From contig JBAIAA010000806.1 of assembly GCA_037893245.1 (NCBI GenBank), positions 558,001 to 622,000 on the forward strand: DNA of 64,000 nt, written 5' to 3'. Below, in pieces: positions 630-46,116 of this stretch. The first letter of the stretch is position 1. Each line of letters begins with the position of its first letter. The notes under the pieces are model-generated. The model was given only the letters and a program-made list of their open reading frames with translations, searched no databases and had not been told where the DNA came from. The stretch is from Crossaster papposus. Lineage: Eukaryota > Echinodermata > Asteroidea > Velatida > Solasteridae. Position numbers and translations under genes: made by a program.

Positions 630-656
630 AACCTATGGCGAATTTGAAACGCGTGT

Positions 657-13677: not shown

Positions 13678-13699
13678 CTTCATGCCCTTATTTGTGGGC
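13678..13699 (+). repeat. 22-bp internal duplication (221-bp monomer)
   Basis: Same duplication, 1,614 bp (8 x 199 + 22) after the copy at 12,064, so this turn of the higher-order unit has two additional monomers. Confidence 0.95.
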
Positions 13700-15091: not shown

Positions 15092-15113
15092 CTTCATGCC
15101 CTTATTTGTTTGC
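15092..15113 (+). repeat. 22-bp internal duplication, TTTGC subtype
   Basis: Same duplication with the second copy ending TTTGC, as at 1,609. It follows a monomer with a 5-C run, a combination repeated at 16,311 and 17,526. Confidence 0.95.
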
Positions 15114-16310: not shown

Positions 16311-16332
16311 CTTCATGCCCTTATTTGTTTGC
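16311..16332 (+). repeat. 22-bp internal duplication, TTTGC subtype
   Basis: Same subtype as at 15,092 and 1,219 bp downstream. The spacing exceeds 6 x 199 + 22 by 3 bp because of local C-run changes: two monomers have eight C and one has five. Confidence 0.95.
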
Positions 16333-17525
16333 GGGGATTGTGTGCACAAACCTATGGCGAATTTGAAACGCGTGTGTTAACGTTAAAATGTTCAGAAAAT
16401 CGAAATAAAATACTAACAAAGCATGCCCCGGGTCAAATTGCTAATTTTGCCATTCCTGGAGGCCCCCCTCTATCTCCTAACACCCAGCCCCTTCCCGGGG
16501 CATGCTTTCCTTCATGCCCTTATTTGTGGGCGGGGATTGTGTGCACAAACCTATGGCGAATTTGAAACGCGTGTGTTAACGTTAAAATTTTCAGAACATC
16601 GAAATAAAATACTAACAAAGCATGCCCCGGGTCAAATTGCTAATTTTGCCATTCCTGGACGCCCCCCTCTATCTCCTAACACCCAGCCCCTTCCCGGGGC
16701 ATGCTTTCCTTCATGCCCTTATTTGTGGGCGGGGATTGTGTGCACAAACCTATGGCGAATTTGAAACGCGTGTGTTAACGTTAAAATTTTCAGAAAATCG
16801 AAATAAAATACTAACAAAGCATGCCCCGGGTCAAATTGCTAATTTTGCCATTCCTGGAGGCCCCCCTCTATCTCCTAACACCCAGCCCCTGCCCGGGGCA
16901 TGCTTTCCTTCATGCCCTTATTTGTGGGCGGGGATTGTGTGCACAAACCTATGGCGAATTTGAAACGCGTGTGTTAACGTTAAAATGTTCAGAAAATCGA
17001 AATAAAATACTAACAAAGCATGCCCCGGGTCAAATTGCTAATTTTTCCATTCCTGGAGTCCCCCCTCTATCTCCTTACACCCAGCCCCTTCCCGGGGCAT
17101 GCTTTCCTTCATGCCCTTATTTGTGGGCGGGGATTGTGTGCACAAACCTATGGCGAATTTGAAACGCGTGTGTTAACGTTAACATTTTCAGAAAATCGAA
17201 ATAAAATACTAACAAAGCATGCCCCGGGTCAAATTGCTAATTGTGCCATTCCTGGAGGCCCCCCTCTATCTCCTAACACCCAGCCCCTTCCCGGGGCATG
17301 CTTTCCTTCATGCCCTTATTTGTGGGCGGGGATTGTGTGCACAAACCTATGGCGAATTTGAAACGCGTGTGTTAACGTAAACATTTTCAGAAAATCGAAA
17401 TAAAATACTAACAAAGCATGCCCCGGGTCAAATTGCTAATTTTGCCATTCCTGGAGGCCCCCTCTATCTCCTAACACCCAGCCCCTTCCCGGGGCATGCT
17501 TTCCTTCATGCCCTTATTTGTGGGC

Positions 17526-17547
17526 CTTCATGCCCTTATTTGCTTGC
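17526..17547 (+). repeat. 22-bp internal duplication, CTTGC subtype
   Basis: The last 22-bp duplication in the window, 1,215 bp after the previous one, with the second copy ending GCTTGC. The following monomer also has CCTATTGCG in place of CCTATGGCG. No further copy is seen in the remaining 46 kb. Confidence 0.95.
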
Positions 17548-17574
17548 GGGGATTGTGTGCACAAACCTATTGCG

Positions 17575-22877: not shown

Positions 22878-25000
22878 CCCTTCCCGGGGCATGCTTTCCT
22901 TCATTCCCTTATTTGTGGGCGGGGATTGTGTGCACAAACCTATGACGAATTTGAAACGCGTGTGTTAACGTTAAAATGTTCAGAAAATCGAAATAAAATA
23001 CTAACAAAGCATGCCCCGGGTCAAATTGCTAATTTTGCCATTCCTGGAGGCCCCCCTCTATCTCCTAACACCCAGCCCCTTCCCGGGGCATGCTTTCCTT
23101 CATGCCCTTATTTGTGGGCGGGGATTGTGTGCACAAACCTATGGCGAATTTGAAACGCGTGTGTTAACGTTACAATTTTCAGAAAATCGAAATAAAATAC
23201 TAACAAAGCATGCCCCGGGTCAAATTGCTAATTCTGCCATTCCTGGAGGCCCCCCTCTATCTCCTAACACCCAGCCCCTTCCCGGGGCATGCTTTCCTTC
23301 ATGCCCTTATTTGTGGGCGGGGATTGTGTGCACAAACCTATGGCGAATTTGAAACGCGTGTGTTAACGTTAACATTTTCAGAAAATCGAAATAAAATACT
23401 AACAAAGCATGCCCAGGGTCAAATTGCTAATTTTGCCATTCCTGGAGGCCCCCCTCTATCTCCTAACACCCAGCCGCTTCCCGCAGCATGCTTTCCTTCA
23501 TGCCCTTATTTGTGGGCTGGGATTGTGTGCACAAACCTATGGCGAATTTGAAACGCGTGTGTTAACGTTAAAATTTTCAGAAAATCGAAATAAAATACTA
23601 ACAAAGCATGCCCCGGGTAAAATTGCTAATTTTGCCATTCCTGGAGGCCCCCCTCTATCTCCTAACACCCAGCCCCTTCCCGGGGCATGCTTTTCTTCAT
23701 GCCCTTAATTGTGGGCGGGGATTGTGTGCACAAACCTATGGCGAATTTGAAACGCGTGTGTTAACGTTAACATTTTCAGAAAATCGAAATAAAATACTAA
23801 CAAAGCATGTCCCTGGTCAAATTGCTAATTTTGCCATTTCTGGAGGCCCCTCTCTATCTCCTAAAACCCAGCCCCTTCCCGGGGCATGCTTTCCTTCATG
23901 CCCTTATTTGTGGGCGGGGATTGTGTGCACAAACCTATGGCGAATTTGAAACGCGTGTGTTAACGTTAAAATGTTCAGAAAATCGAAATAAAATACTAAC
24001 AAAGCATGCCCAGGGTCAAATTGCTAATTTTGCCATTCCTGGAGGCCCCCCTCTATCTCCTAACACCCAGCCCCTTCCCGGGGCATGCTTTCCTTCATGC
24101 CCTTATTTGTGGGCGGGGATTGTGTGCACAAACCTATGGCGAATTTGAAACGCGTGTGTTAACGTTAACATTTTCAGAAAATCGAAATAAAATACTAACA
24201 AAGCATGCCCAGGGTCAAATTGCTAATTTTGCCATTCCTGGAGGCCACCCTCTATCTCCTAACACCCAGCCGCTTCCCGCAGCATGCTTTCCTTCATGCC
24301 CTTATTTGTGGGCGGGGATTGTGTGCACAAACCTATGGCGAATTTGAAACGCGTGTGTTAACGTTAAAATTTTCAGAAAATCGAAATAAAATACTAACAA
24401 AGCATGCCCCGGGTCAAATTGCTAATTTTGCCATTCCTGGAGGCCCCCCTCTATCTCCTAACACCCAGCCCCTTCCCGGGGCATGCTTTTCTTCATGCCC
24501 TTAATTGTGGGCGGGGATTGTGTGCACAAACCTATGGCGAATTTGAAACGCGTGTGTTAACGTTAACATTTTCAGAAAATCGAAATAAAATACTAACAAA
24601 GCATGTCCCTGGTCAAATTGCTAATTTTGCCATTTCTGGAGGCCCCTCTCTATCTCCTAAAACCCAGCCCCTTCCCGGGGCATGCTTTCCTTCATGCCCT
24701 TATTTGTGGGCGGGGATTGTGTGCACAAACCTATGGCGAATTTGAAACGCGTGTGTTAACGTTAAAATGTTCAGAAAATCGAAATAAAATACTAACAAAG
24801 CATGCCCAGGGTCAAATTGCTAATTTTTCCATTCCTGGAGGCCCCCCTCTATCTCCTAACACCCAGCCCCTTCCCGGAGCATGCTTTCCTTCATGCCCTT
24901 ATTTGTGGGCGGGGATTGTGTGCACAAACCTATGGCGAATTTGAAACGCGTGTGTTAACGTTAACATTTTCAGAAAATCGAAATAAAATACTAACAAAGC

Positions 25001-26195
25001 ATGCCCCGGGTCAAATTGCTAATTCTGCCATTCCTGGAGGCCCCCCTCTATCTCCTAACACCCAGCCCCTTCCCGGGGCATGCTTTCCTTCATTCCCTTA
25101 TTTGTGGGCGGGGATTGTGTGCACAAACCTATGGCGAATTTGAAACGCGTGTGTTAACGTTAAAATGTTCAGAAAATCGAAATAAAATACTAACAAAGCA
25201 TGCCCCGGGTCAAATTGCTAATTTTGCCATTCCTGGAGGCCCCCCTCTATCTCCTAACACCCAGCCCCTTCCCGGGGCATGCTTTCCTTCATTCCCTTAT
25301 TTGTGGGCGGGGATTGTGTGCACAAACCTATGGCGAATTTGAAACGCGTGTGTTAACGTTAAAATGTTCAGAAAATCGAAATAAAATACTAACAAAGCAT
25401 GCCCCGGGTCAAATTGCTAATTTTGCCATTCCTGGAGGCCCCCCTCTATCTCCTAACACCCAGCCCCTTCCCGGGGCATGCTTTCCTTCATGCCCTTATT
25501 TGTGGGCGGGGATTGTGTGCACAAACCTATGGCGAATTTGAAACGCGTGTGTTAACGTTACAATTTTCAGAAAATCGAAATAAAATACTAACAAAGCATG
25601 CCCCGGGTCAAATTGCTAATTCTGCCATTCCTGGAGGCCCCCCTCTATCTCCTAACACCCAGCCCCTTCCCGGGGCATGCTTTCCTTCATTCCCTTATTT
25701 GTGGGCGGGGATTGTGTGCACAAACCTATGGCGAATTTGAAACGCGTGTGTTAACGTTAAAATGTTCAGAAAATCGAAATAAAATACTAACAAAGCATGC
25801 CCCGGGTCAAATTGCTAATTTTGCCATTCCTGGAGGCCCCCCTCTATCTCCTAACACCCAGCCCCTTCCCGGGGCATGCTTTCCTTCATTCCCTTATTTG
25901 TGGGCGGGGATTGTGTGCACAAACCTATGGCGAATTTGAAACGCGTGTGTTAACGTTAAAATGTTCAGAAAATCGAAATAAAATACTAACAAAGCATGCC
26001 CCGGGTCAAATTGCAAATTTTGCCATTCCTGGAGGCCCCCCTCTATCTCCTAACACCCAGCCCCTTCCCGGGGCATGCTTTCCTTCATGCCCTTATTTGT
26101 GGGCGGGGATTGTGTGCACAAACCTATGGCGAATTTGAAACGCGTGTGTTAACGTTACAATTTTCAGAAAATCGAAATAAAATACTAACAAAGCA
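25001..26195. repeat. 597-bp (3-monomer) higher-order pattern
   Basis: Two consecutive three-monomer units share the order: a monomer with TTCATTCCC following AATTCTGCC, a second with TTCATTCCC and AAAATGTTC, then one with TTCATGCCC and TTACAATTTTC. The second unit ends with TTGCAAATTTTGCC, so the pair is not identical. Confidence 0.7.
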
Positions 26196-28859
26196 TGCCC
26201 CGGGTCAAATTGCTAATTTTGCCATTCCTGGAGGCCCCCCTCTATCTCCTAACACCCAGCCCCTTCCCGGGGCATGCTTTCCTTCATGCCCTTATTTGTG
26301 GGCGGGGATTGTGTGCACAAACCTATGGCGAATTTGAAACGCGTGTGTTAACGTTACAATTTTCAGAAGATCGAAATAAAATACTAACAAAGCATGCCCC
26401 GGGTCAAATGGCTAATTTTGCCATTCCTGGAGGCCCCCTTCTATCTCCTAACACCCAGCCCCTTCCCGGGGCATGCTTTCCTTCATGCCCTTATTTGTGG
26501 GCGGGGATTGTGTGCACAAACCTATGGCGAATTTGAAACGCGTGTGTTAACGTTAACATTTTCAGAAAATCGAAATAAAATACTAACAAAGCATGCCCCT
26601 GGTCAAATTGCTAATTTTGCCATTCCTGGAGGCCCCCCTCTATCTCCTAACACCCAGCCCCTTCCCGGGGCATGCTTTCCTTCATGCCCTTATTTGTGGG
26701 CGGGGATTGTGTGCACAAACCTATGGCGAATTTGAAACGCGTGTGTTAACGTTAAAATTTTCAGAAAATCGAAATAAAATACTAACAAAGCATGCCCAGG
26801 GTCAAATTGCTAATTTTGCCATTCCTGGAGGCCCTCCTCTATCTCCTAACACCCAGCCCCTTCCCGGAGCATGCTTTCCTTCATGCCCTTATTTGTGGGC
26901 GGGGATTATGTGCACAAACCTATGGCGAATTTGAAACGCGTGTGTTAATGTTAAAATGTTCAGAAAATCGAAATAAAATACTAACAAAGCATGCCCCGGG
27001 TCAAATTGCTAATTTTGCCATTCCTGGAGGCCCCCCTCTATCTCCTAACACCCAGCCCCTTCCCGGGGCATGCTTTCCTTCATGCCCTTATTTGTGGGCG
27101 GGGATTGTGTGCACAAACCTATGGCGAATTTGAAACGCGTGTGTTAACGTTAACATTTTCAGAAAATCGAAATAAAATACTAACAAAGCATGCCCCGGGT
27201 CAAATTGCTAATTTTGCCATTCCTGGAGGCCCCCCTCTATCTCCTAACACCCAGCCCCTTCCCGGGGCATGCTTTCCTTCATGCCCTTATTTGTGGGCGG
27301 GGATTGTGTTCACACACCTATGGCGAATTTGAAACGCGTGTGTTAACGTTAAAATTTTCAGAAAATCGAAATAAAATACTAACAAAGCATGCCCCGGGTC
27401 AAATTGCTAATTTTGCCATTCCTGGAGGCCCCCCTCTATCTCCTAACACCCAGCCCCTTCCCGGGGCATGCTTTCCTTCATTCCCTTATTTGTGGGCGGG
27501 GATTGTGTGCACAAACCTATGGCGAATTTGAAACGCGTGTGTTAACGTTAAAATGTTCAGAAAATCGAAATAAAATACTAACAAAGCATGCCCCGGGTCA
27601 AATTGCTAATTTTGCCATTCCTGGAGGCCCCCCTCTATCTCCTAACACCCAGCCCCTTCCCGGGGCATGCTTTCCTTCATGCCCTTATTTGTGGGCGGGG
27701 ATTGTGTGCACAAACCTATGGCGAATTTGAAACGCGTGTGTTAACGTTAAAATGTTCAGAAGATCGAAATAAAATACTAACAAAGCATGCCCAGGGTCAA
27801 ATTGCTAATTTTGCCATTCCTGGAGGCTCCCCTCTATCTCCTAACACCCAGCCCCTTCCCGGGGCATGCTTTCCTTCATGCCCTTATTTGTGGGCGGGGA
27901 TTGTGTGCACAAACCTATGGCGAATTTGAAACGCGTGTGTTAACGTTAACATTTTCAGAAAATCGAAATAAAATACTAACAAAGCATGCCCCGGGTCAAA
28001 TTGCTAATTTTGCCATTCCTGGAGGCCCCCCTCTATCTCCTAACACCCAGCCCCTTCCCGGGGCATGCTTTCCTTCATGCCCTTATTTGTGGGCGGGGAT
28101 TGTGTGCACAAACCTATAGCGAATTTGAAACGCGTGTGTTAACGTTAACATTTTCAGAAAATCGAAATAAAATACTAACAAAGCATGCCCAGGGTCAAAT
28201 TGCTAATTTTGCCATTCCTGGAGGCCCCCCTCTATCTCCTAACACCCAGCCCCTTCCCGGAGCATGCTTTCCTTCATGCCCTTATTTGTGGGCGGGGATT
28301 GTGTGCACAAACCTATGGCGAATTTGAAACGCGTGTGTTAACGTAAAAATTTTCAGAAAATTGAAATAAAATACTAACAAAGCATGCTCCGGGTCAAATT
28401 GCTAATTTTGCCATTCCTGGAGGCCCCCCTCTATCTCCTAACACCCAGCCCCTTCCCGGGGCATGCTTTCCTTCATTCCCTTATTTGTGGGCGGGGATTG
28501 TGTGCACAAACCTATGGCGAATTTGAAACGCGTGTGTTAACGTTAAAATGTTCAGAAAATCGAAATAAAATACTAACAAAGCATGCCCCGGGTCAAATTG
28601 CTAATTTTGCCATTCCTGGAGGCCCCCCTCTATCTCCTAACACCCAGCCCCTTCCCGGGGCATGCTTTCCTTCATGCCCTTATTTGTGGGCGGGGATTGT
28701 GTGCACAAACCTATGGCGAATTTGAAACGCGTGTGTTAACGTTAAAATGTTCAGAAGATCGAAATAAAATACTAACAAAGCATGCCCCGGGTCAAATTGC
28801 TAATTTTGCCATTCCTGGAGGCCCCCCTCTATCTCCTAACACCCAGCCCCTTCCCGGGG

Positions 28860-30135
28860 CATGCTTTCCTTCATGCCCTTATTTGTGGGCGGGGATTGTG
28901 TGCACAAACCTATGGCGAATTTGAAACGCGTGTGTTAACGTTAACATTTTCAGAAAATCGAAATAAAATACTAACAAAGCATGCCCCTGGTCAAATTGCT
29001 AATTTTGCCATTCCTGGAGGCCCCCCTCTATCTCCTAACACCCAGCCCCTTCCCGGGGCATGCTTTCCTTCATGCCCTTATTTGTGGGCGGGGATTGTGT
29101 GCACAAACCTATAGCGAATTTGAAACGCGTGTGTTAACGTTAAAATTTTCAGAAAATCGAAATAAAATACTAACAAAGCATGCCCAGGGTCAAATTGCTA
29201 TTTTTGCCATTCCTGGAGGCCCCCCTCTATCTCCTAACACCCAGCCCCTTCCCGGAGCATGCTTTCCTTCATGCCCTTATTTGTGGGCGGGGATTGTGTG
29301 CACAAACCTATGGCGAATTTGAAACGCGTGTGTTAACGTTAAAATTTTCAGAAAATTGAAATAAAATACTAACAAAGCATGCTCCGGGTCAAATTGCTAA
29401 TTTTGCCATTCCTAGAGGCCCCCTCTATCTCCTAACACCCAGCCCCTTCCCGCGGCATGCTTTCCTTCATGCCCTTATTTGTGGGCGGGGATTGTGTGCA
29501 CAAACCTATGGCGAATTTGAAACGCGTGTGTTAACGTTAACATTTTCAGAAAATCGAAATAAAATACTAACAAAGCATGCCCCTGGTCAAATTGCTAATT
29601 TTGCCATTCCTGGAGGCCCCCCTCTATCTCCTAACACCCAGCCCCTTCCCGGGGCATGCTTTCCTTCATGCCCTTATTTGTGGGCGGGGATTGTGTGCAC
29701 AAACCTATAGCGAATTTGAAACGCGTGTGTTAACGTTAAAATTTTCAGAAAATCGAAATAAAATACTAACAAAGCATGCCCAGGGTCAAATTGCTATTTT
29801 TGCCATTCCTGGAGGCCCCCCTCTATCTCCTAACACCCAGCCCCTTCCCGGAGCATGCTTTCCTTCATGCCCTTATTTGTGGGCGGGGATTGTGTGCACA
29901 AACCTATGGCGAATTTGAAACGCGTGTGTTAACGTTAAAATTTTCAGAAAATTGAAATAAAATACTAACAAAGCATGCTCCGGGTCAAATTGCTAATTTT
30001 GCCATTCCTAGAGGCCCCCTCTATCTCCTAACACCCAGCCCCTTCCCGCGGCATGCTTTCCTTCATGCCCTTATTTGTGGGCGGGGATTGTGTGCACAAA
30101 CCTATGGCGAATTTGAAACGCGTGTGTTAACGTTA
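28860..30135. repeat. 596-bp higher-order repeat, about two tandem copies
   Basis: Three monomers, one of them 198 bp because its C-run has five C, repeat with an offset of 596 bp. Shared rare markers are GCATGCCCCTGG, CCTATAGCG, GCTATTTTTGCC, CCCGGAGC, AAAATTGAAAT, GCATGCTCCGGG, CCTAGAGG and CCCGCGGC. The right limit is at about 30,136, where TTACAATTTT replaces TTAACATTTT. Confidence 0.85.
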
Positions 30136-32430
30136 CAATTTTCAGAAAATCGAAATAAAATACTAACAAAGCATGCCCCGGGTCAAATTGCTAATTTTGC
30201 CATTCCTGGAGGCCCCCCTCTATCTCCTAACACACAGCCCCTTCCCGGGGCATGCTTTCCTTCATGCCCTTATTTGTGGGCGGGGATTGTGTGCACAAAC
30301 CTATGGCGAATTTGAAACGCGTGTGTTAACGTTAACATTTTCAGAAAATCGAAATAAAATACTAACAAAGCATGCCCCGGGTCAAATTGCTAATTTTGCA
30401 TTTCCTGGAGGCCCCCCTCTATCTCCTAACACCCAGCCCCTTCCCGGGGCATGCTGTCCTTCATGCCCTTATTTGTGGGCGGGGATTGTGTGCACAAACC
30501 TATGGCGAATTTGAAACGCGTGTGTTAACGTTACAATTTTCAGAAAATCGAAATAAAATACTAACAAAGCATGCCCCGGGTCAAATTGCTAATGTTGCCA
30601 TTCCTGGAGGCCCCCCTCTATCTCCTAACACCCAGCCCCTTCCCGGGGCATGCTTTCCTTCATGCCCTTATTTGTGGGCGGGGATTGTGTGCACAAACCT
30701 ATGGCGAATTTGAAACGCGTGTGTTAACGTTAACATTTTCAGAAGATCGAAATAAAATACTAACAAAGCATGCCCCGGGTCAAATTGCTAATTTTGCCAT
30801 TCCTGGAGGCCCCCCTCTATCTCCTAACACCCAGCCCCTTCCCGGGGCATGCTTTCCTTCATGCCCTTATTTGTGGGCGGGGATTGTGTGCACAAACCTA
30901 TGGCGAATTTGAAACGCGTGTGTTAACGTTAACATTTTCAGAAAATCGAAATAAAATACTAACAAAGCATGCCCCTGGTCAAATTGCTAATTTTGCCATT
31001 CCTGGAGGCCCCCCTCTATCTCCTAACACCCAGCCCCTTCCCGGGGCATGCTTTCCTTCATGCCCTTATTTGTGGGCGGGGATTGTGTGCACAAACCTAT
31101 GGCGAATTTGAAACGCGTGTGTTAACGTTAAATTTTTCAGAAAATCGAAATAAAATACTAACAAAGCATGCCCAGGGTCAAATTGCTAATTTTGCCATTC
31201 CTGGAGGCCCCCCTCTATCTCCTAACACCCAGCCTTTTCCCGGAGCATGCTTTCCTTCATGCCCTTATTTGTGGGCGGGGATTGTGTGCACAAACCTATG
31301 GCGAATTTGAAACGCGAGTGTTAACGTTAAAATTTTCAGAAAATAGAAATAAAATACTAACAAAGCATGCCCCGCGTCAAATTGCTAATGTTGCCATTCC
31401 TGGAGGCCCCCCTCTATCTCCTAACACCCAGCTCCTTCCCGGGGCATGCTTTTCTTCATGCCCTTATTTGTGGGCGGGGATTGTGTGCACAAACCTATGG
31501 CGAATTTGAAACGCGTGTGTTAACGTTAAAATGTTCAGAAAATCGAAATAAAATACTAACAAAGCATGCCCCGGGTTAAATTGCTAATTTTGCCATTCCT
31601 GGAGGCCCCCCTCTATCTCCTAACACCCAGCCCCTTCCCGGGGCATGCTTTCCTTCATGCCCTTATTTGTGGGCGGGGATTGTGTGCACAAACCTATGGC
31701 GAATTTGAAACGCGTGTGTTAACGTTAACATTTTCAGAAAATCGAAATAAAATACTAACAAAGCATGCCCCTGGTCAAATTGCTAATTTTGCCATTCCTG
31801 GAGGCCCCCCTCTTTCTCCTAACACCCAGCCCCTTCCCGGGGCATGCTTTCCTTCATGCCCTTATTTGTGGGCGGGGATTGTGTGCACAAACCTATGGCG
31901 AATTTGAAACGCGTGTGTTAACGTTAAATTTTTCAGAAAATCGAAATAAAATACTAACAAAGCATGCCCCGGGTCAAATTGCTAATGTTGCCATTCCTGG
32001 AGGCCCCCCTCTATCTCCTAACACCCAGCTCCTTCCCGGGGCATGCTTTTCTTCATGCCCTTATTTGTGGGCGGGGATTGTGTGCACAAACCTATGGCGA
32101 ATTTGAAACGCGTGTGTTAACGTTAAAATGTTCAGAAAATCGAAATAAAATACTAACAAAGCATGCCCCGGGTTAAATTGCTAATTTTGCCATTCCTGGA
32201 GGCCCCCCTCTATCTCCTAACACCCAGCCCCTTCCCGGGGCATGCTTTCCTTCATGCCCTTATTTGTGGGCGGGGATTGTGTGCACAAACCTATGGCGAA
32301 TTTGAAACGCGTGTGTTAACGTTAACATTTTCAGAAAATCGAAATAAAATACTAACAAAGCATGCCCCGGGTCAAATTGCTAATTTTGCCATTCCTGGAG
32401 GCCCCCCTCTATCTCCTAACACCCAGCCCC

Positions 32431-32439
32431 TTCCCGGGG
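32431..32439. repeat. Target-site duplication, left copy
   Basis: TTCCCGGGG immediately precedes the inserted element and is repeated just after it at 32,858. An uninterrupted monomer contains this 9-mer only once at this point. The duplication could be read as 10 bp (32,430-32,439 with C) if the terminal C at 32,857 is assigned to the flank. Confidence 0.85.
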
Positions 32440-32469
32440 GCGTGATTTTTTTTCCCAACATGGTAAAGG
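32440..32469 (+). repeat. Left terminal inverted repeat
   Basis: It begins GCGTGATTTTTTTTCCC and continues through ACATGGTAAAGG. It pairs with the reverse complement of 32,828-32,857, with mismatches at positions 4, 5, 14, 19, 20 and 25. Confidence 0.85.
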
Positions 32470-32483
32470 CCAATTATCATAAC

Positions 32484-32499
32484 TGGGCGTGTCTAGACC
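32484..32499 (+). repeat. Subterminal inverted repeat, left
   Basis: TGGGCGTGTCTAGACC matches the reverse complement of 32,807-32,822 at 14 of 16 positions. It lies 14 bp inside the left terminal repeat, against 5 bp on the right, so the full terminal repeat is about 60 bp with one indel. It contains the palindrome GTCTAGAC. Confidence 0.8.
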
Positions 32500-32519
32500 A
32501 CACTGAATGGAAGACACTT

Positions 32520-32534
32520 AGGTTCTTAGAACCT
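32520..32534. repeat. Short hairpin in the element
   Basis: AGGTTC-TTA-GAACCT is a 6-bp inverted repeat with a 3-nt loop. No role is evident. Confidence 0.5.
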
Positions 32535-32619
32535 TGCTTCCCCTCAAATTAAACTCATCCCACAATAAACTTACAATACAAAAATAGTCAATGAAAAATG
32601 AGCACAATCGAACCGATGA

Positions 32620-32630
32620 GAACTCGAACC
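32620..32630 (-). promoter_or_regulatory. B-box-like Pol III promoter element
   Basis: Read on the minus strand it is GGTTCGAGTTC, one mismatch from the B-box pattern GGTTCGANTCC. It corresponds to the T-arm of a tRNA. Confidence 0.65.
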
Positions 32631-32662
32631 CCAATCTTACGATCTATAACCTAACCCATTAT

Positions 32663-32673
32663 CTACTTGACTA
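32663..32673 (-). promoter_or_regulatory. A-box-like Pol III promoter element
   Basis: Read on the minus strand it is TAGTCAAGTAG, which fits the eukaryotic A-box pattern TRGYNNARYGG at all positions but one (A for the first G of the final GG). Confidence 0.6.
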
Positions 32674-32753
32674 CTGGGAGAGGTCGACAGAAGCCGTTTT
32701 TCTAAGTGCTTTAATGTATCTCTGGCCTACGTGTAACTAGTTGACTGAGCAAT

Positions 32754-32778
32754 AACAATATATTTTAGTATTATTGTT
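32754..32778. repeat. AT-rich hairpin in the element
   Basis: AACAATA (32,754-32,760) and TATTGTT (32,772-32,778) are exact reverse complements around an 11-nt AT-rich loop. No function is inferred. Confidence 0.55.
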
Positions 32779-32806
32779 GAAACTACTGAATAATCATGAC
32801 GCGAGG

Positions 32807-32822
32807 GGTGTAGAAACGCCCA
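32807..32822 (-). repeat. Subterminal inverted repeat, right
   Basis: The reverse complement reads TGGGCGTTTCTACACC and pairs with 32,484-32,499 at 14 of 16 positions. Confidence 0.8.
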
Positions 32823-32827
32823 TTTAC

Positions 32828-32857
32828 CCTTTCCCATAGTGGGGAAAAAAATTTCGC
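32828..32857 (-). repeat. Right terminal inverted repeat
   Basis: Its reverse complement starts GCGAAATTTTTTTCCCC and continues ACTATGGGAAAGG, matching the left end at 24 of 30 positions. Confidence 0.85.
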
Positions 32858-32866
32858 TTCCCGGGG
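32858..32866. repeat. Target-site duplication, right copy
   Basis: Second TTCCCGGGG, from which the monomer continues into CATGCTTTCC. A paralogous uninterrupted site is at 29,646-29,654, in a block that otherwise matches the right flank at an offset of 3,212 bp. Confidence 0.85.
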
Positions 32867-34024
32867 CATGCTTTCCTTCATGCCCTTATTTGTGGGCGGG
32901 GATTGTGTGCACAAACCTATAGCGAATTTGAAACGCGTGTGTTAACGTTAAAATTTTCAGAAAATCGAAATAAAATACTAACAAAGCATGCCCAGGGTCA
33001 AATTGCTAATTTTGCCATTCCTGGAGGCCCCCCTCTATCTCCTAACACCCAGCCCCTTCCCGGAGCATGCTTTCCGTCATGCCCTTATTTGTGGGCGGGG
33101 ATTGTGTGCACAAACCTATGGCGAATTTGAAACGCGTGTGTTAACGTTAAAATTTTCAGAAAATTGAAATAAAATACTAACAAAGCATGCTCCGGGTCAA
33201 ATTGCTAATTTTGCCATTCCTGGAGGCCCCCTCTATCTCCTAACACCCAGTCCCTTCCCGCGGCATGCTTTCCTTCATGCCCTTATTTGTGGGCGGGGAT
33301 TGTGTGCACAAACCTATGGCGAATTTGAAACGCGTGTGTTAACGTTACAATTTTCAGAAAATCGAAATAAAATACTAACAAAGCATGCCCCGGGTCAAAT
33401 TGCTAATTTTGCCATTCCTGGAGGCCCCCCTCTATCTCCTAACACACAGCCCCTTCCCGGGGCATGCTTTCCTTCATGCCCTTATTTGTGGGCGGGGATT
33501 GTGTGCACAAACCTATGGCGAATTTGAAACGCGTGTGTTAACGTTAACATTTTCAGAAAATCGAAATAAAATACTAACAAAGCATGCCCCGGGTCAAATT
33601 GCTAATTTTGCATTTCCTGGAGGCCCCCCTCTATCTCCTAACACCCAGCCCCTTCCCGGGGCATGCTTTCCTTCATGCCCTTATTTGTGGGCGGGGATTG
33701 TGTGCACAAACCTATGGCGAATTTGAAACGCGTGTGTTAACGTTACAATTTTCAGAAAATCGAAATAAAATACTAACAAAGCATGCCCCGGGTCAAATTG
33801 CTAATGTTGCCATTCCTGGAGGCCCCCCTCTATCTCCTAACACCCAGCCCCTTCCCGGGGCATGCTTTCCTTCATGCCCTTATTTGTGGGCGGGGATTGT
33901 GTGCACAAACCTATGGCAAATTTGAAACGCGTGTGTTAACGTTAACATTTTCAGAAGATCGAAATAAAATACTAACAAAGCATGCCCCGGGTCAAATTGC
34001 TAATTTTGCCATTCCTGGAGGCAC

Positions 34025-36235
34025 CCCTCTATCTCCTAACACCCAGCCCCTTCCCGGGGCATGCTTTCCTTCATGCCCTTATTTGTGGGCGGGGATTGTG
34101 TGCACAAACCTATGGCGAATTTGAAACGCGTGTGTTAACGTTAACATTTTCAGAAAATCGAAATAAAATACTAACAAAGCATGCCCCTGGTCAAATTGCA
34201 AATTTTGCCATTCCTGGAGGCCCCCCTCTATCTCCTAACACCCAGCCCCTTCCCGGGGCATGCTTTCCTTCATGCCCTTATTTGTGGGCGGGGATTGTGT
34301 GCACAAACCTATGGCGAATTTGAAACGCGTGTGTTAACGTTAAATTTTTCAGAAAATCGAAATAAAATACTAACAAAGCATGCCCAGGGTCAAATTGCTA
34401 ATTTTGCCATTCCTGGAGGCCCCCCTCTATCTCCTAACACCCAGCCTTTTCCCGGAGCATGCTTTCCTTCATGCCCTTATTTGTGGGCGGGGATTGTGTG
34501 CACAAACCTATGGCGAATTTGAAACGCGTGTGTTAACGTTAAAATTTTCAGAAAATTGAAATAAAATACTAACAAAGCATGCTCCGGGTCAAATTGCTAA
34601 TTTTGCCATTCCTGGAGGCCCCCTCTATCTCCTAACACCCAGCCCCTTCCCGCGGCATGCTTTCCTTCATGCCCTTATTTGTGGGCGGGGATTGTGTGCA
34701 CAAACCTATGGCGAATTTGAAACGCGTGTGTTAACGTTACAATTTTCAGAAAATCGAAATAAAATACTAACAAAGCATGCCCCGGGTCAAATTGCTAATT
34801 TTGCCATTCCTGGAGGCCCCCCTCTATCTCCTAACACACAGCCCCTTCCCGGGGCATGCTTTCCTTCATGCCCTTATTTGTGGGCGGGGATTGTGTGCAC
34901 AAACCTATGGCGAATTTGAAACGCGTGTGTTAACGTTAACATTTTCAGAAAATCGAAATAAAATACTAACAAAGCATGCCCCGGGTCAAATTGCTAATTT
35001 TGCATTTCCTGGAGGCCCCCCTATATCTCCTAACACCCAGCCCCTTCCCGGGGCATGCTTTCCTTCATGCCCTTATTTGTGGGCGGGGATTGTGTGCACA
35101 AACCTATGGCGAATTTGAAACGCGTGTGTTAACGTTACAATTTTCAGAAAATCGAAATAAAATACTAACAAAGCATGCCCCGGGTCAAATTGCTAATGTT
35201 GCCATTCCTGGAGGCCCCCCTCTATCTCCTAACACGCAGCCCCTTTCCGGGGCATGCTTTCCTTCATGCCCTTATTTGTGGGCGGGGATTGTGTGCACAA
35301 ACCTATGGCGAATTTGAAACGCGTGTGTTAACGTTAACATTTTCAGAAGATCGAAATAAAATACTAACAAAGCATGCCCCGGGTCAAATTGCTAATTTTG
35401 CCATTCCTGGAGGCCCCCCTCTATCTCCTAACACCCAGCCCCTTCCCGGGGCATGCTTTCCTTCATGCCCTTATTTGTGGGCGGGGATTGTGTGCACAGA
35501 CCTATGGCGAATTTGAAACGCGTGTGTTAACGTTAACATTTTCAGAAAATCGAAATAAAATACTAACAAAGCATGCCCCTGGTCAAATTGCTAATTTTGC
35601 CATTCCTGGAGGCCCCCCTCTATCTCCTAACACCCAGCCCCTTCCCGGGGCATGCTTTCCTTCATGCCCTTATTTGTGGGCGGGGATTGTGTGCACAAAC
35701 CTATGGCAAATTTGAAACGCGTGTGTTAACGTTAAATTTTTCAGAAAATCGAAATAAAATACTAACAAAGCATTCCCAGGGTCAAATTGCTAATTTTGCC
35801 ATTCCTGGAGGCCCCCATCTATCTCCTAACACCCAGCCTTTTCCCGGAGCATGCTTTCCTTCATGCCCTTATTTGTGGGCGGGGATTGTGCGCACAAACC
35901 TATGGCGAATTTGAAACGCGAGTGTTAACGTTAACATTTTCAGAAAATCGAAATAAAATACTAACAAAGCATGCCCCGGGTCAAATTGCTAATGTTGCCA
36001 TTCCTGGAGGCCCCCCTCTATCTCCTAACACCCAGCCCCTTCCCGGGGCATGCTTTTCTTCATGCCCTTATTTGTGGGCGGGGATTGTGTGCACAAACCT
36101 ATGGCGAATTTGAAACGCGTGTGTTAACGTTAAAATGTTCAGAAAATCGAAATAAAATACTAACAAAGCATGCCCCGGGTTAAATTGCTAATTTTGCCAT
36201 TCCTGGAGGCCCCCCTCTATCTCCTAACACCCAGC
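34025..36235. repeat. Higher-order block B, copy 1 (recurs +4,376 bp)
   Basis: Variant monomers recur 4,376 bp downstream (22 x 199 minus 2). Markers are GCCCCTGGTCAAATTGCAAA, AAATTTTTCAG, CCTTTTCCCGGAGC, GCATGCTCCGGG, ACACACAGC, TTGCATTTCC, ACACGCAGC, CACAGACC, GCATTCCCAGGG and CGGGTTAAATT. The two base differences noticed are CTATATCTCC near 35,032 and GCGTGTG versus GCGAGTG at 36,120/40,496. Confidence 0.85.
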
Positions 36236-38400
36236 CCCTTCCCGGGGCATGCTTTCCTTCATGCCCTTATTTGTGGGCGGGGATTGTGTGCACAAACCTA
36301 TGGCGAATTTGAAACGCGTGTGTTAACGTTAACATTTTCAGAAAATCGAAATAAAATACTAACAAAGCATGCCCCGGGTCAAATTGCTAATTTTGCCATT
36401 CCTGGAGGCCCCCCTCTATCTCCTAACACCCAGCCCCTTCCCGGGGCATGCTTTCCTTCATGCCCTTATTTGTGGGCGGGGATTGTGTGCACAAACCTAT
36501 GGCGAATTTGAAACGCGTGTGTTAACGTTAACATTTTCAGAAGATCGAAATAAAATACTAACAAAGCATGCCCCGGGTCAAATTGCTAATTTTGCCATTC
36601 CTGGAGGCCCCCCTCTATCTCCTAACACCCAGCCCCTTCCCGGGGCATGCTTTCCTTCATGCCCTTATTTGTGGGCGGGGATTGTGTGCACAAACCTATG
36701 GCGAATTTGAAACGCGTGTGTTAACGTTAACATTTTCAGAAAATCGAAATAAAATACTAACAAAGCATGCCCCTGGTCAAATTGCTAATTTTGCCATTCC
36801 TGGAGGACCCCTCTATCTCCTAACACCCAGCCCCTTCCCGGGGCATGCTTTCCTTCATGCCCTTATTTGTGGGCTGGGATTGTGTGCACAAACCTATGGC
36901 GAATTTGAAACGCGTGTGTTAACGTTAAATTTTTCAGAAAATCGAAATAAAATACTAACAAAGCATGCCCAGGGTCAAATTGCTAATTTTGCCATTCCTG
37001 GAGGCCCCCCTCTATCTCCTAACACCCAGCCTTTTCCCGGAGCATGCTTTCCTTCATGCCCTTATTTGTGGGCGGGGATTGTGTGCACAAACCTATGGCG
37101 AATTTGAAACGCGAGTGTTAACGTTACAATTTTCAGAAAATCGAAATAAAATACTAACAAATCATGCCCCGGGTCAAATTGCTAATGTTGCCATTCCTGG
37201 AGGCCCCCCTCTATCTCCTAACACCCAGCCCCTTCCCGGAGCATGCTTTCCTTCATGCCCTTATTTGTGGGCGGGGATTGTGTGCACAAACCTATGGCGA
37301 ATTTGAAACGCGAGTGTTAACGTTAAAATTTTCAGAAAATCGAAATAAAATACTAACAAAGCATGACCCGGGTCAAATTGCTAATTTTGCCATTCCAGGA
37401 GGCCCCCCTCTATCTCCTAACACCCAGCCCCTTCCCGGAGCATGCTTTTCTTCATGCCCTTATTTGTGGGCGGGGATTGTGTGCACAAACCTATGGCGAA
37501 TTTGAAACGCGTGTGTTAACGTTAAAATGTTCAGAAAATCGAAATAAAATACTAACAAAGCATGCCACGGGTCAAATTGCTAATTTTGCCATTCCTGGAG
37601 GCCCCCCTCTATCTCCTAACACCCAGCCCCTTCCCGGGGCATGCTTTCCTTCATGCCCTTATTTGTGGGCGGGGATTGTGTGCACAAACCTATGGCGAAT
37701 TTGAAACGCGTGTGTTAACGTTAACATTTTCAGAAAATCGAAATAAAATACTAACAAAGCATGCCCCGGGTCAAATTGCTAATTTTGCCATTCCTGGAGG
37801 CCCCCCTCTATCTCCTAACACCCAGCCCTTTCCCGGGGCATGCTTTCCTTCATGCCCTTATTTGTGGGCGGGGATTGTGTGCACAAACCTATGGCGAATT
37901 TGAAACGCGTGTGTTAACGTTACAATTTTCAGAAAATCGAAATAAAATACTAACAAAGCATGCCCCGGGTCAAATTGCTAATTTTGCCATTCCTGAAGGC
38001 CCCCCTCTATCTCCTAACACCCAGCCCCTTCCCGGGGCATGCTTTCCTTCATGCCCTTATTTGTGGGCGGGGATTGTGTGCACAAACCTATGGCGAATTT
38101 GAAACGCGTGTGTTAACGTTAACATTTTCAGAAAATCGAAATAAAATACTAACAAAGCATGCCCCGGGTCAAATTGCTAATTTTGCCATTCCTGGAGGCC
38201 CCCCTCTATCTCCTAACACCCAGCCCCTTCCCGGGGCATGCTTTCCTTCATTCCCTTATTTGTGGGCGGGGATTGTGTGCACAAACCTATGGCGAATTTG
38301 AAACGCGTGTGTTAACGTTAAAATGTTCAGAAAATCGAAATAAAATACTAACAAAGCATGCCCCGGGTCAAATTGCTAATTTTGCCATTCCTGGAGGCCC

Positions 38401-40611
38401 CCCTCTATCTCCTAACACCCAGCCCCTTCCCGGGGCATGCTTTCCTTCATGCCCTTATTTGTGGGCGGGGATTGTGTGCACAAACCTATGGCGAATTTGA
38501 AACGCGTGTGTTAACGTTAACATTTTCAGAAAATCGAAATAAAATACTAACAAAGCATGCCCCTGGTCAAATTGCAAATTTTGCCATTCCTGGAGGCCCC
38601 CCTCTATCTCCTAACACCCAGCCCCTTCCCGGGGCATGCTTTCCTTCATGCCCTTATTTGTGGGCGGGGATTGTGTGCACAAACCTATGGCGAATTTGAA
38701 ACGCGTGTGTTAACGTTAAATTTTTCAGAAAATCGAAATAAAATACTAACAAAGCATGCCCAGGGTCAAATTGCTAATTTTGCCATTCCTGGAGGCCCCC
38801 CTCTATCTCCTAACACCCAGCCTTTTCCCGGAGCATGCTTTCCTTCATGCCCTTATTTGTGGGCGGGGATTGTGTGCACAAACCTATGGCGAATTTGAAA
38901 CGCGTGTGTTAACGTTAAAATTTTCAGAAAATTGAAATAAAATACTAACAAAGCATGCTCCGGGTCAAATTGCTAATTTTGCCATTCCTGGAGGCCCCCT
39001 CTATCTCCTAACACCCAGCCCCTTCCCGCGGCATGCTTTCCTTCATGCCCTTATTTGTGGGCGGGGATTGTGTGCACAAACCTATGGCGAATTTGAAACG
39101 CGTGTGTTAACGTTACAATTTTCAGAAAATCGAAATAAAATACTAACAAAGCATGCCCCGGGTCAAATTGCTAATTTTGCCATTCCTGGAGGCCCCCCTC
39201 TATCTCCTAACACACAGCCCCTTCCCGGGGCATGCTTTCCTTCATGCCCTTATTTGTGGGCGGGGATTGTGTGCACAAACCTATGGCGAATTTGAAACGC
39301 GTGTGTTAACGTTAACATTTTCAGAAAATCGAAATAAAATACTAACAAAGCATGCCCCGGGTCAAATTGCTAATTTTGCATTTCCTGGAGGCCCCCCTCT
39401 ATCTCCTAACACCCAGCCCCTTCCCGGGGCATGCTTTCCTTCATGCCCTTATTTGTGGGCGGGGATTGTGTGCACAAACCTATGGCGAATTTGAAACGCG
39501 TGTGTTAACGTTACAATTTTCAGAAAATCGAAATAAAATACTAACAAAGCATGCCCCGGGTCAAATTGCTAATGTTGCCATTCCTGGAGGCCCCCCTCTA
39601 TCTCCTAACACGCAGCCCCTTTCCGGGGCATGCTTTCCTTCATGCCCTTATTTGTGGGCGGGGATTGTGTGCACAAACCTATGGCGAATTTGAAACGCGT
39701 GTGTTAACGTTAACATTTTCAGAAGATCGAAATAAAATACTAACAAAGCATGCCCCGGGTCAAATTGCTAATTTTGCCATTCCTGGAGGCCCCCCTCTAT
39801 CTCCTAACACCCAGCCCCTTCCCGGGGCATGCTTTCCTTCATGCCCTTATTTGTGGGCGGGGATTGTGTGCACAGACCTATGGCGAATTTGAAACGCGTG
39901 TGTTAACGTTAACATTTTCAGAAAATCGAAATAAAATACTAACAAAGCATGCCCCTGGTCAAATTGCTAATTTTGCCATTCCTGGAGGCCCCCCTCTATC
40001 TCCTAACACCCAGCCCCTTCCCGGGGCATGCTTTCCTTCATGCCCTTATTTGTGGGCGGGGATTGTGTGCACAAACCTATGGCAAATTTGAAACGCGTGT
40101 GTTAACGTTAAATTTTTCAGAAAATCGAAATAAAATACTAACAAAGCATTCCCAGGGTCAAATTGCTAATTTTGCCATTCCTGGAGGCCCCCATCTATCT
40201 CCTAACACCCAGCCTTTTCCCGGAGCATGCTTTCCTTCATGCCCTTATTTGTGGGCGGGGATTGTGCGCACAAACCTATGGCGAATTTGAAACGCGAGTG
40301 TTAACGTTAACATTTTCAGAAAATCGAAATAAAATACTAACAAAGCATGCCCCGGGTCAAATTGCTAATGTTGCCATTCCTGGAGGCCCCCCTCTATCTC
40401 CTAACACCCAGCCCCTTCCCGGGGCATGCTTTTCTTCATGCCCTTATTTGTGGGCGGGGATTGTGTGCACAAACCTATGGCGAATTTGAAACGCGAGTGT
40501 TAACGTTAAAATGTTCAGAAAATCGAAATAAAATACTAACAAAGCATGCCCCGGGTTAAATTGCTAATTTTGCCATTCCTGGAGGCCCCCCTCTATCTCC
40601 TAACACCCAGC
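38401..40611. repeat. Higher-order block B, copy 2
   Basis: Second copy of the block at 34,025. Beyond about 40,611 it departs (CCCGGAGCATGCTTTTC here, CCCGGGGCATGCTTTCC in copy 1). Confidence 0.85.
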
Positions 40612-40943
40612 CCCTTCCCGGAGCATGCTTTTCTTCATGCCCTTATTTGTGGGCGGGGATTGTGTGCACAAACCTATGGCGAATTTGAAACGCGTGTGTT
40701 AACGTTAAAATGTTCAGAAAATCGAAATAAAATACTAACAAAGCATGCCCCGGGTCAAATTGCTAATTTTGCCATTCCTGGAGGCCCCCCTCTATCTCCT
40801 AACACCCAGCCCCTTCCCGGGGCATGCTTTCCTTCATGCCCTTATTTGTGGGCGGGGATTGTGTGCACAAACCTATGGCGAATTTGAAACGCGTGTGTTA
40901 ACGTTACAATTTTCAGAAAATCGAAATAAAATACTAACAAAGC

Positions 40944-43900
40944 ATGCCCCGGGTCAAATTGCTAATTCTGCCATTCCTGGAGGCCCCCCTCTATCTCCTA
41001 ACACCCAGCCCCTTCCCGGGGCATGCTTTCCTTCATGCCCTTATTTGTGGGCGGGGATTGTGTGCACAAACCTATGGCGAATTTGAAACGCGTGTGTTAA
41101 CGTTAACATTTTCAGAAAATCGAAATAAAATACTAACAAAGCATGCCCCGGGTCAAATTGCTAATTTTGCCATTCCTGGAGGCCCCCCTCTATCTCCTAA
41201 CACCCAGCCCCTTCCCGGGGCATGCTTTCCTTCATTCCCTTATTTGTGGGCGGGGATTGTGTGCACAAACCTATGGCGAATTTGAAACGCGTGTGTTAAC
41301 GTTAAAATGTTCAGAAAATCGAAATAAAATACTAACAAAGCATGCCCCGGGTCAAATTGCTAATTTTGCCATTCCTGGAGGCCCCCCTCTATCTCCTAAC
41401 ACCCAGCCCCTTCCCGGGGCATGCTTTCCTTCATGCCCTTATTTGTGGGCGGGGATTGTGTGCACAAACCTATGGCGAATTTGAAACGCGTGTGTTAACG
41501 TTACAATTTTCAGAAAATCGAAATAAAATACTAACAAAGCATGCCCGGGTCAAATTGCTAATTTTGCCATTCCTGGAGGCCCCCCTCTATCTCCTAACAC
41601 CCAGCCCCTTCCCGGGGCATGCTTTCCTTCATGCCCTTATTTGTGGGCGGGGATTGTGTGCACAAACCTATGGCGAATTTGAAACGCGTGTGTTAACGTT
41701 AACATTTTCAGAAAATCGAAATAAAATACTAACAAAGCATGCCCGGGGTCAAATTGCTAATTTTGCCATTCCTGGAGGCCCCCCTCTATCTCCTAACACC
41801 CAGCCCCTTCCCGGGGCATGCTTTCCTTCATGCCCTTATTTGTGGGCGGGGATTGTGTGCACAAACCTATGGCGAATTTGAAACGCGTGTGTTAACGTTA
41901 AAATTTTCAGAAAATCGAAATAAAATACTAACAAAGCATGCCCCGGGTCAAATTGCTAATTTTGCCATTTTTGGAGGCCCCCCTCTATCTCCTAACACCC
42001 AGCCCCTTCCCGGGGCATGCTTTCCTTCATGCCTTTATTTGTGGGCGGGGATTGTGTGTACAAACCTATGGCGAAATTGAAACGCGTGTGTTAACGTTAA
42101 CATTTTCAGAAAATCGAAATAAAATACTAACAAAGCATGCCCCGGGTCAAATTGCTAATTTTGCCATTCCTGGAGGCCCCCCTCTATCTCCTAACACCCA
42201 GCCCCTTCCCGGGGCATGCTTTCCTTCATGCCCTTATTTGTGGGCGGGGATTGTGTGCACAAACCTATGGCGAATTTGAAACGCGTGTGTTAACGTTACA
42301 ATTTTCAGAAAATCGAAATAAAATACTAACAAAGCATGCCCTGGGTCAAATTGCTACTTTTGCCATTCCTGGAGGCCCCCCTCTATCTCCTAACACCCAG
42401 CCCCTTCCCGGGGCATGCTTTCCTTCATGCCCTTATTTGTGGGCGGGGGTTGTGTGCACAAACCTATGGCGAATTTGAAACGCGTGTGTTAACGTTAACA
42501 TTTTCAGAAGATCGAAATAAAATACTAACAAAGCATGCCCCGGGTCAAATTGCTAATTTTGCCATTCCTGGAGGCCCCCCTCTATCTCCTAACACCCAGC
42601 CCCTTCCCGGGGCATGCTTTCCTTCATGCCCTTATTTGTGGGCGGGGATTGTGTGCACAAACCTATGGCGAATTTGAAACGCGTGTGTTAACGTTAACAT
42701 TTTCAGAAAATCGAAATAAAATACTAACAAAGCATGCCCCGGGTCAAATTGCTAATTTTGCCATTCCTGGAGGCCCCCCTCTATCTCCTAACACCCAGCC
42801 CCTTCCCGGGGCATGCTTTCCTTCATGCCCTTATTTGTGGGCGGGGATTGTGTGCACAAACCTATGGCGAATTTGAAACGCGTGTGTTAACGTTAACATT
42901 TTCAGAAAATCGAAATAAAATACTAACAAAGCATGCCCCGGGTCAAATTGCAAATTTTGCCATTCCTGGAGGCCCCCCCTCTATCTCCTAACACCCAGCC
43001 CCTTCCCGGCGCATGCTTTCCTTTATGCCCTTATTTGTGGGCGGGGATTGTGTGCACAAACCTATGGCGAATTTGAAACGCGTGTGTTAACGTTAAAATT
43101 TTCAGAAAATCGAAATAAAATACTAACAAAGCATGCCCCGGGTCAAATTGCTAATTTTGCCATTCCTGGAGGCCCCCCTCTATCTCCTAACACCCAGCCC
43201 CTTCCCGGGGCATGCTTTCCTTCATGCCCTTATTTGTGGGCGGGGATTGTGTGCACAAACCTATGGCGAATTTGAAACGCGTGTGTTAACGTTAACATTT
43301 TCAGAAAATCGAAATAAAATACTAACAAAGCATGCCCCGGGTCAAATTGCTAATTTTGCCATTCCTGGAGGCCCCCCTCTATCTCCTAACACCCAGCCCC
43401 TTCCCGGGGCATGCTTTCCTTCATTCCCTTATTTGTGGGCGGGGATTGTGTGCACAAACCTATGGCGAATTTGAAACGCGTGTGTTAACGTTAAAATGTT
43501 CAGAAAATCGAAATAAAATACTAACAAAGCATGCCCCGGGTCAAATTGCTAATTTTGCCATTCCTGGAGGCCCCCCTCTATCTCCTAACACCCAGCCCCT
43601 TCCCGGGGCATGCTTTCCTTCATGCCCTTATTTGTGGGCGGGGATTGTGTGCACAAACCTATGGCGAATTTGAAACGCGTGTGTTAACGTTACAATTTTC
43701 AGAAAATCGAAATAAAATACTAACAAAGCATGCCCGGGTCAAATTGCTAATTTTGCCATTCCTGGAGGCCCCCCTCTATCTCCTAACACCCAGCCCCTTC
43801 CCGGGGCATGCTTTCCTTCATGCCCTTATTTGTGGGCGGGGATTGTGTGCACAAACCTATGGCGAATTTGAAACGCGTGTGTTAACGTTAACATTTTCAG

Positions 43901-46000: not shown

Positions 46001-46116
46001 TTTCCTTCATGCCTTTATTTGTGGGCGGGGATTGTGTGTACAAACCTATGGCGAAATTGAAACGCGTGTGTTAACGTTAACATTTTCAGAAAATCGAAAT
46101 AAAATACTAACAAAGC

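What the first reader, a model, noticed from the sequence alone, without database searches (positions are those of the whole stretch)
32440..32857. MITE-like transposon inserted once into a satellite monomer, with the insertion length exactly accounted for
The monomer is interrupted by exactly 427 bp, equal to a 418-bp element plus a 9-bp target duplication (TTCCCGGGG). Terminal repeats match at 24 of 30 and subterminal repeats at 14 of 16. No transposase is encoded. I do not recognise the family. It is a single-copy landmark in 64 kb of tandem repeat and postdates this part of the array.
Basis: partly seen in the sequence, partly recalled or inferred. Interest (0 to 1): 0.7.

Follow-up and report, generated by a model that had tools for sequence, protein, structure and literature searches.

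The report
Young MULE-type MITE hitting satellite hotspot
A 418-base 'hitchhiker' piece of jumping DNA sits in a long tandem-repeat array; it belongs to a young family, shares its ends with an 8.2-kb element that carries a Mutator-like transposase exon, and members of the family have jumped repeatedly into the very same spot of this repeat.

Summary
In the host genome (1.02 Gb) it is a young, multi-copy MITE family. The 40 copies scored are full length and about 99-100% identical; 38 of 40 have a perfect 9-bp target duplication. The target is strict: positions 4 and 6 of the 9-mer are C and G in 40 of 40 (31 of 31 distinct sites; background 5%). Three 8.2-kb elements with nearly the same ends were located. 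The two read in full hold a long open exon resembling MULE/IS256 transposases (scores at the Pfam cut-off). Two of the three have perfect 9-bp duplications obeying the C-N-G rule, both inside this same satellite, one at the monomer position of the window's copy. Six of eight MITE copies found in the satellite sit at the identical 9-mer, in both orientations; the five compared fall in several subfamilies, so this is recurrent insertion, not array amplification. 'Single-copy landmark' holds only for the window. Mobilisation itself is inferred, not assayed.

The parts
32440..32857 (+). 418-bp non-autonomous element (MITE), oriented with the GCGTGATTTT end on the left
32431..32439 (.). left copy of the 9-bp target duplication TTCCCGGGG
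32858..32866 (.). right copy of the 9-bp target duplication TTCCCGGGG
32440..32469 (+). left terminal inverted repeat; the family's left end is 25 of 30 identical to the end of the 8.2-kb element
32828..32857 (-). right terminal inverted repeat; the family's right end is 29 of 30 identical to the end of the 8.2-kb element
32484..32499 (+). left subterminal repeat TGGGCGTGTCTAGACC
   Evidence: read by eye
32807..32822 (-). right subterminal repeat TGGGCGTTTCTACACC, 14 of 16 with the left one
   Evidence: read by eye
32620..32673 (-). weak lead: A-box-like (32663-32673) and B-box-like (32620-32630) RNA polymerase III promoter motifs at tRNA-like spacing
   Evidence: 10 of 6000 shuffles do as well; no tRNA found by ARAGORN or Rfam
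1..64000 (+). 199-bp satellite array, the insertion target; 8 C-N-G 9-mers in the consensus monomer, of which TTCCCGGGG is used here

Best explanation
The feature is a recently moved MITE mobilised by a Mutator-like (MULE, IS256-related) transposase. An 8.2-kb element with nearly the same ends supplies, or supplied, the transposase. The enzyme binds the roughly 30-bp ends, cuts the element out and joins it to target DNA with a 9-base stagger centred on a C-N-G trinucleotide; repair of the gaps makes the 9-bp duplication. The satellite offers such sites in every monomer and one of them is a hotspot. Shown: ends, target duplications, C-N-G rule in the copies examined, shared ends and shared satellite position with the transposase-bearing element, several sequence subfamilies at one site. 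Inferred: that this transposase moves the MITE in trans, and the cut-and-paste chemistry.
For: 40 of 40 scored copies full length, about 99-100% identical. 38 of 40 perfect 9-bp duplications, the other two 7 of 9 and 8 of 9. C at position 4 and G at position 6 in 40 of 40 left-flank 9-mers, and in 31 of 31 distinct sites, against 5.1% C-N-G in flanks. A plain terminal-repeat pattern matches 77 + 82 times, reversed control 0. A 34-base end pattern of the long element matches 11 times: three inverted pairs, 8202, 8254 and 8267 bp long, and five unpaired ends. The family's right end is 29 of 30 identical to these ends. The long element's exon matches Pfam MULE at 27.8 bits in C489 (cut-off 27.6, E 3.5e-6) and 27.4 bits in C337 (E 4.6e-6, just under the cut-off), and IS256 transposase at E 2.9e-6 and 4e-6. 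Long copies lie in this satellite with perfect duplications GCCCCGGGT (C337) and TTCCCGGAG (C653), the latter at the same monomer position as the window's MITE.
Against: Beyond about 30-34 terminal bases the MITE shares nothing detectable with the 8.2-kb element, so it is not a simple internal deletion of it; another related element could be the true partner. The left MITE end is only 25 of 30 identical. The MULE match is at the cut-off (one copy just over, one just under), the IS256 matches are far below that model's cut-off of 150 bits, and the three loci are not among the 79 listed MULE hits of the genome search (150 of 225 candidates scored). The C489 copy lacks a matching duplication; its right-hand 9-mer fits C-N-G, its left-hand one does not. 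Its exon stops earlier than that of C337 (316 against 373 codons). The third long copy, C653, was read only at its ends, so its transposase is assumed. Five of 11 long-element ends are unpaired.
Confidence: 0.9

Rival explanations
1. A MITE of another superfamily that makes long target duplications (Merlin, 8-9 bp; P or hAT, about 8 bp, the latter two from recall).
For: Merlin also gives 8- or 9-bp duplications (passages of PMC8101967). The MULE score of the partner is marginal.
Against: Merlin ends begin 5'-GG, these begin GCG; duplications are 9 bp in the 38 of 40 copies with a perfect one; the longer element's exon matches MULE and IS256 best, and no Merlin, P or hAT family is listed for it. 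The Merlin-domain search of the genome did not complete.
Confidence: 0.05
2. The copies at the same satellite site arose from one insertion that was amplified with the array.
For: Satellite blocks of 2 kb have partners elsewhere in the window at up to 100% identity; on C271 two ends of one rare variant lie 9016 bp apart on the same strand; and a different 263-bp element in L054 lies twice at the same monomer site.
Against: The six MITE copies at the 9-mer include both orientations relative to the satellite (L001, L016, L028, L038, L054 one way, L035 the other). The five compared carry different diagnostic substitutions (L001 280T; L016 363T; L028 and L038 231G+410T; L035 387G+388G), and L028 and L038 each share further marks with a copy outside the satellite (L029, L040). 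L054 was not in that comparison. The long element hit the same monomer position.
Confidence: 0.05
3. A SINE-like retroposon (RNA polymerase III boxes) that happens to have inverted ends.
For: A- and B-box-like motifs on the minus strand.
Against: Precise full-length copies, fixed 9-bp duplications, paired inverted ends shared with a transposase-bearing element, no A-rich tail in the sequence; no tRNA match.
Confidence: 0.02

Closest known systems
Mutator-like elements (MULE/MuDR superfamily), e.g. maize Mu and mosquito Muta1
   Same: 9-bp target duplications, terminal inverted repeats, non-autonomous derivatives (passages of PMC2774946; PMC5225508); MULE-like transposase exon in the long partner.
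   Different: Mu has only a weak target pattern with the five central bases unspecified, and 61 of 2,127 sites fit it exactly (passage); Muta1 shows little or no sequence preference and both 8- and 9-bp duplications (passage). Here the central C-N-G is present in 40 of 40 copies and the 38 perfect duplications are all 9 bp.
Dada DNA transposons
   Same: DDE transposase distantly similar to those of MuDR, hAT, P and Kolobok and to IS256; repeated insertion into one position of a multicopy sequence (passages of PMC3706591).
   Different: 6-7-bp duplications, no terminal inverted repeats, RNA genes as target; here 9 bp, clear terminal repeats, a satellite and dispersed C-N-G sites.
Merlin (IS1016-like) transposons
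   Same: 8- or 9-bp duplications (passages).
   Different: 5'-GG ends and a DDE_Tnp_IS1595 domain; the ends here begin GCG and the partner's exon shows no such domain.

Membership tests
MITE (non-autonomous DNA transposon) | short, no transposase, terminal inverted repeats, many near-identical copies with fixed ends | tested here: met
MITE (non-autonomous DNA transposon) | fixed-length target duplication at copies | tested here: met
   38 of 40 perfect at 9 bp
MITE (non-autonomous DNA transposon) | moved in trans by an autonomous element | not testable with these tools
   only shared ends and shared target sites shown
MULE superfamily | partner encodes MULE/IS256-type transposase | tested here: inconclusive
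   Pfam MULE is the best family for both exons, but at the cut-off of 27.6: 27.8 bits and 27.4 bits; IS256 E 2.9e-6 and 4e-6, below that model's cut-off. Favours membership; C653 not read inside
MULE superfamily | D, D, C-x2-H and E motifs of the catalytic domain | tested here: inconclusive
   FMDSSGTMD, MTDD, CTFH and NNYAEA present in this order; that these are the catalytic residues is from recall, no structure obtained
MULE superfamily | target duplication of 8-9 bp or near it | tested here: met
   9 bp in 38 of 40 MITE copies and 2 of 3 long copies
Merlin | ends begin 5'-GG | tested here: not met
   ends begin GCG in 40 of 40 copies
Dada | 6-7-bp duplication, no terminal inverted repeats | tested here: not met

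The most novel reading that the evidence does not exclude
A Mutator-like transposon system whose transposase reads a strict palindromic C-N-G core and which has taken an abundant satellite as a recurrent landing site, parent element and MITE alike hitting the same base of the monomer; that is, a MULE evolving towards target specificity, with the satellite as a safe haven.
Probability: 0.3. Interest if true: 0.7.

Novelty: new variant of a known kind. Interest (0 to 1): 0.5.

Why it matters
In the two MULEs whose target choice I could read about, it is weak (Mu) or nearly absent (Muta1). A family with an invariant C-N-G core and a single-base hotspot in a satellite gives a clear handle on how a MULE transposase reads its target, and, as C-N-G is also a DNA-methylation context in some organisms (recalled), on whether chromatin or base reading decides. 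Independent insertions at one base of a tandem repeat also give datable, single-position markers for how satellite arrays turn over.

Tried and rejected
tRNA or SINE origin: A/B-box-like motifs occur on the minus strand (10 of 6000 dinucleotide shuffles do as well), but ARAGORN and Rfam at permissive cut-offs find no tRNA, and the older relative fails the same strict box test. Kept as a lead only. The Rfam match MIR2670 in L040 (56 bits against a gathering score of 117) spans the junction of a young and an old copy: taken as a hairpin artefact of two inverted copies.

Base-preference model from 29 non-satellite sites (11 of 40 dropped: 7 satellite copies, one locus with identical flanks, three of four copies in another repeat): it explains why C-N-G sites are used but ranks TCCCGGGGC above TTCCCGGGG, and on the 9-mer alone ranks TTCCCGGGG fifth. 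This counts against a purely sequence-based account of the hotspot.

Viral-contig scans for a satellite 24-mer and a MITE core found 0; an 18-base subterminal pattern found 2 contigs, not examined; I take them for chance, by rough reckoning only. The phage search gave 12 records with short weak matches. Nine paper searches; those bearing on target choice were 28, 36, 56, 101 and 102, and none listed a MULE with an invariant C-N-G target. One more paper was looked at in passages and not used (PMC10294476). The organism was not identified. An older-relative end query (asked from then on), a Merlin-domain search and a search with the transposase exon did not complete.

On checking, the two exons were compared with Pfam and NCBIfam separately (searches added to 118, 121); C337 falls just under the MULE cut-off, so that membership row became inconclusive and confidence went from 0.92 to 0.90 (and the first rival from 0.04 to 0.05).

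Full report
What is there. The window is a 199-bp satellite array from end to end (about 320 copies). One monomer is interrupted by 427 bp: a 418-bp element at 32440-32857 plus a second copy of TTCCCGGGG. Deleting the element and one 9-mer restores the monomer. Terminal repeats match at 24 of 30, subterminal ones at 14 of 16 (by eye). It encodes no transposase. Folded as single-stranded DNA it is more stable than shuffles (z -2.97, 2 of 100 shuffles as good), as expected from the inverted ends.

It is a family. The window lies in a 1.02-Gb assembly (G000:C806). A DNA search gave 1854 first-look candidates, of which 40 were scored, giving 43 matches: 40 full-length copies at about 99-100% identity and three partial ones. 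The 1854 are candidates, not confirmed copies. A plain terminal-repeat pattern matched 77 times forward and 82 reverse, 0 in the reversed control. I fetched the 40 copies. All 40 keep the same ends; 38 of 40 have perfect 9-bp duplications, L008 has 7 of 9 and L039 8 of 9. L012 and L013 have identical flanks, so they are one insertion present twice. Mean pairwise difference is 0.93%, but these are the best-scoring copies, so the family's true age is underestimated; L054, met without selection by score, is 97.9% identical over 421 bp. The window's copy differs from the 40-copy majority at two positions.

The target is strict. In the 9-bp target (left-hand copy), position 4 is C and position 6 is G in 40 of 40, position 5 is C or G in 37 of 40, position 3 is never T and position 7 never A: a palindromic NNVCSGBNN-like core. 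Collapsed to distinct 9-mers regardless of strand, 31 of 31 have it, against 5.1% C-N-G in the flanks. In a strand-symmetric model of 29 non-satellite sites most of the information, roughly two thirds, lies in the three central bases, with a weaker signal two bases either side. An older relative next to one copy (about 83% identical, L040) ends in ..TTACGC followed by GAACCGGCC, which fits the rule too, on the one side preserved.

One satellite site is hit again and again. Seven of the 40 scored copies lie in this satellite; an eighth turned up in 200 kb (20 stretches) of satellite read from contig C606, as the only copy found there. Six of these eight sit at TTCCCGGGG (L001 = window, L016, L028, L038, L054, and L035 in the opposite orientation), two at TTCCTGGAG (L015, L036, in opposite orientations). 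If insertions fell evenly on the C-N-G sites of the window's array, six or more of eight at this site has probability 2.6e-5, about 2e-4 after allowing for the eight common sites, since the site was picked after the fact. Diagnostic substitutions differ among the five compared: L001 has 280T (shared by 12 of 40 copies), L016 has 363T (shared only with L015), L028 and L038 have 231G+410T, L035 has 387G+388G; L028 and L038 moreover each share further marks with a copy outside the satellite (L029, L040). So these are separate insertions, not copies of one. L054 was not compared. In the window itself the blocks most like the insertion site (98.75% and less over 2 kb) are empty, so this insertion postdates their duplication. 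Another dispersed repeat carries four copies at GCGCGGCCC (L004, L009, L019, L023).

The partner. Among the places listed by the pattern search (only part of the 159 are listed), seven had a variant end, GCGAAATTTTTTTTCCCACTATGG, and two pairs faced each other about 8.2 kb apart. A 34-base version matches 11 times in the genome: three facing pairs, C489 (8202 bp), C653 (8254 bp), C337 (8267 bp), and five unpaired ends. I read C489 and C337 in full: 97.9% identical to each other, with 62-bp terminal repeats matching at 58 of 62. The MITE family's right end matches theirs at 29 of 30 and its left end at 25 of 30; beyond about 34 bases there is no clear similarity. Both contain an open stretch, counted stop to stop (316 codons in C489, 373 in C337), with the order FMDSSGTMD, MTDD, CTFH, NNYAEA, which I read as the D, D, C-x2-H, E pattern of MULE transposases (recalled). 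Pfam's best family is MULE for both: 27.8 bits for C489, just over the cut-off of 27.6, and 27.4 for C337, just under it; ZSWIM1-3 RNaseH-like follows below its cut-off in both. NCBIfam gives IS256 transposase at E 2.9e-6 and 4e-6, far below that model's cut-off. Two further open stretches of C489 have only weak matches below cut-off; the gene is probably split by introns (inference). Six chains of solved structures came up for the C489 exon, all at E 0.68 or worse, so no relative by sequence. None of the three loci is among the 79 matches listed in the genome-wide MULE search.

The partner lands in the same place. The C337 copy is flanked by GCCCCGGGT on both sides, inside this satellite. The C653 copy, read only at its ends, is flanked by TTCCCGGAG on both sides, inside this satellite, at exactly the monomer position used by the window's MITE; TTCCCGGAG is a monomer variant also seen in the window (19 times). 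Both obey C-N-G. The C489 copy lies in a GGACGGAA-type simple repeat and has no matching duplication; its right 9-mer GGACGGAAG fits the rule, its left one CGGAAGACG does not.

How it works. Most likely a MULE transposase recognises the roughly 30-bp ends, excises the element, and inserts it with a 9-base stagger centred on C-N-G; the MITE is carried in trans. The common ends, target rule and shared hotspot are shown; binding, excision and trans-mobilisation are inferred. Why TTCCCGGGG is preferred among the monomer's C-N-G sites is not explained by the base preferences of the other sites.

Compared with what is known (passages only were read in each paper). For maize Mu the pattern is weak and leaves the five central bases free (PMC2774946); Muta1 of Aedes shows little or no preference (PMC5225508). 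Dada is target-specific but lacks terminal inverted repeats and makes 6-7-bp duplications (PMC3706591). Merlin begins with GG (PMC8101967). Zisupton and a Dileera lineage give 8-bp duplications (PMC12730594). My nine paper searches, in an open-access library only, listed no MULE with such a target; Repbase and Dfam could not be searched, so the family may be catalogued there. I therefore call it a new variant of a known kind.

Limits. The 40 copies were chosen by score; the satellite's share of the genome is unknown, so enrichment in the satellite is not shown, only the recurrence at one of its sites. The MULE assignment rests on scores at the cut-off plus ends, duplication length and motif order.

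Noticed in passing
L054:3728-3990 and L054:4794-5056: A different 263-bp element with CACTGACCTC...GAGGTCAGTG ends lies twice in the same satellite 1066 bp apart, each flanked by GTTAACAC (8 bp, hAT-like by recall); same monomer site, so probably one insertion duplicated with the array.
   Followed up: partly
G000:C271:163516 and C271:172532: Two ends of a rare MITE variant, same strand, 9016 bp apart on the contig of satellite copy L038: perhaps one insertion duplicated with a 9-kb array segment.
   Followed up: no
window, about 52400-60400: 2-kb array blocks repeat at 99.6-100% identity with an offset of about 5177 bp: very recent multi-monomer duplication.
   Followed up: partly
window 4592, 5808, 10206, 10825, 12041, 13655: Six places carry an exact 22-bp tandem duplication (CCTTCATGCCCTTATTTGTGGG), a variant spread within the first 14 kb; a separate 37-bp duplication lies at 50501.
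   Followed up: no
L004, L009, L019, L023: Four MITE copies sit at the same 9-mer GCGCGGCCC of another dispersed repeat, L023 in the opposite orientation: a possible second recurrent site.
   Followed up: partly
L040:1029-1428 and L032: Older relatives (about 83% identical) whose right end has a longer subterminal repeat lie beside young copies; in L040 a young MITE inserted directly next to or into the older one.
   Followed up: partly
window 32620-32673, minus strand: A- and B-box-like polymerase III motifs at tRNA-like spacing inside the MITE.
   Followed up: partly
G000, whole genome: The genome search lists 79 MULE-domain matches, many in long open frames: several other MULE families may be active.
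   Followed up: no
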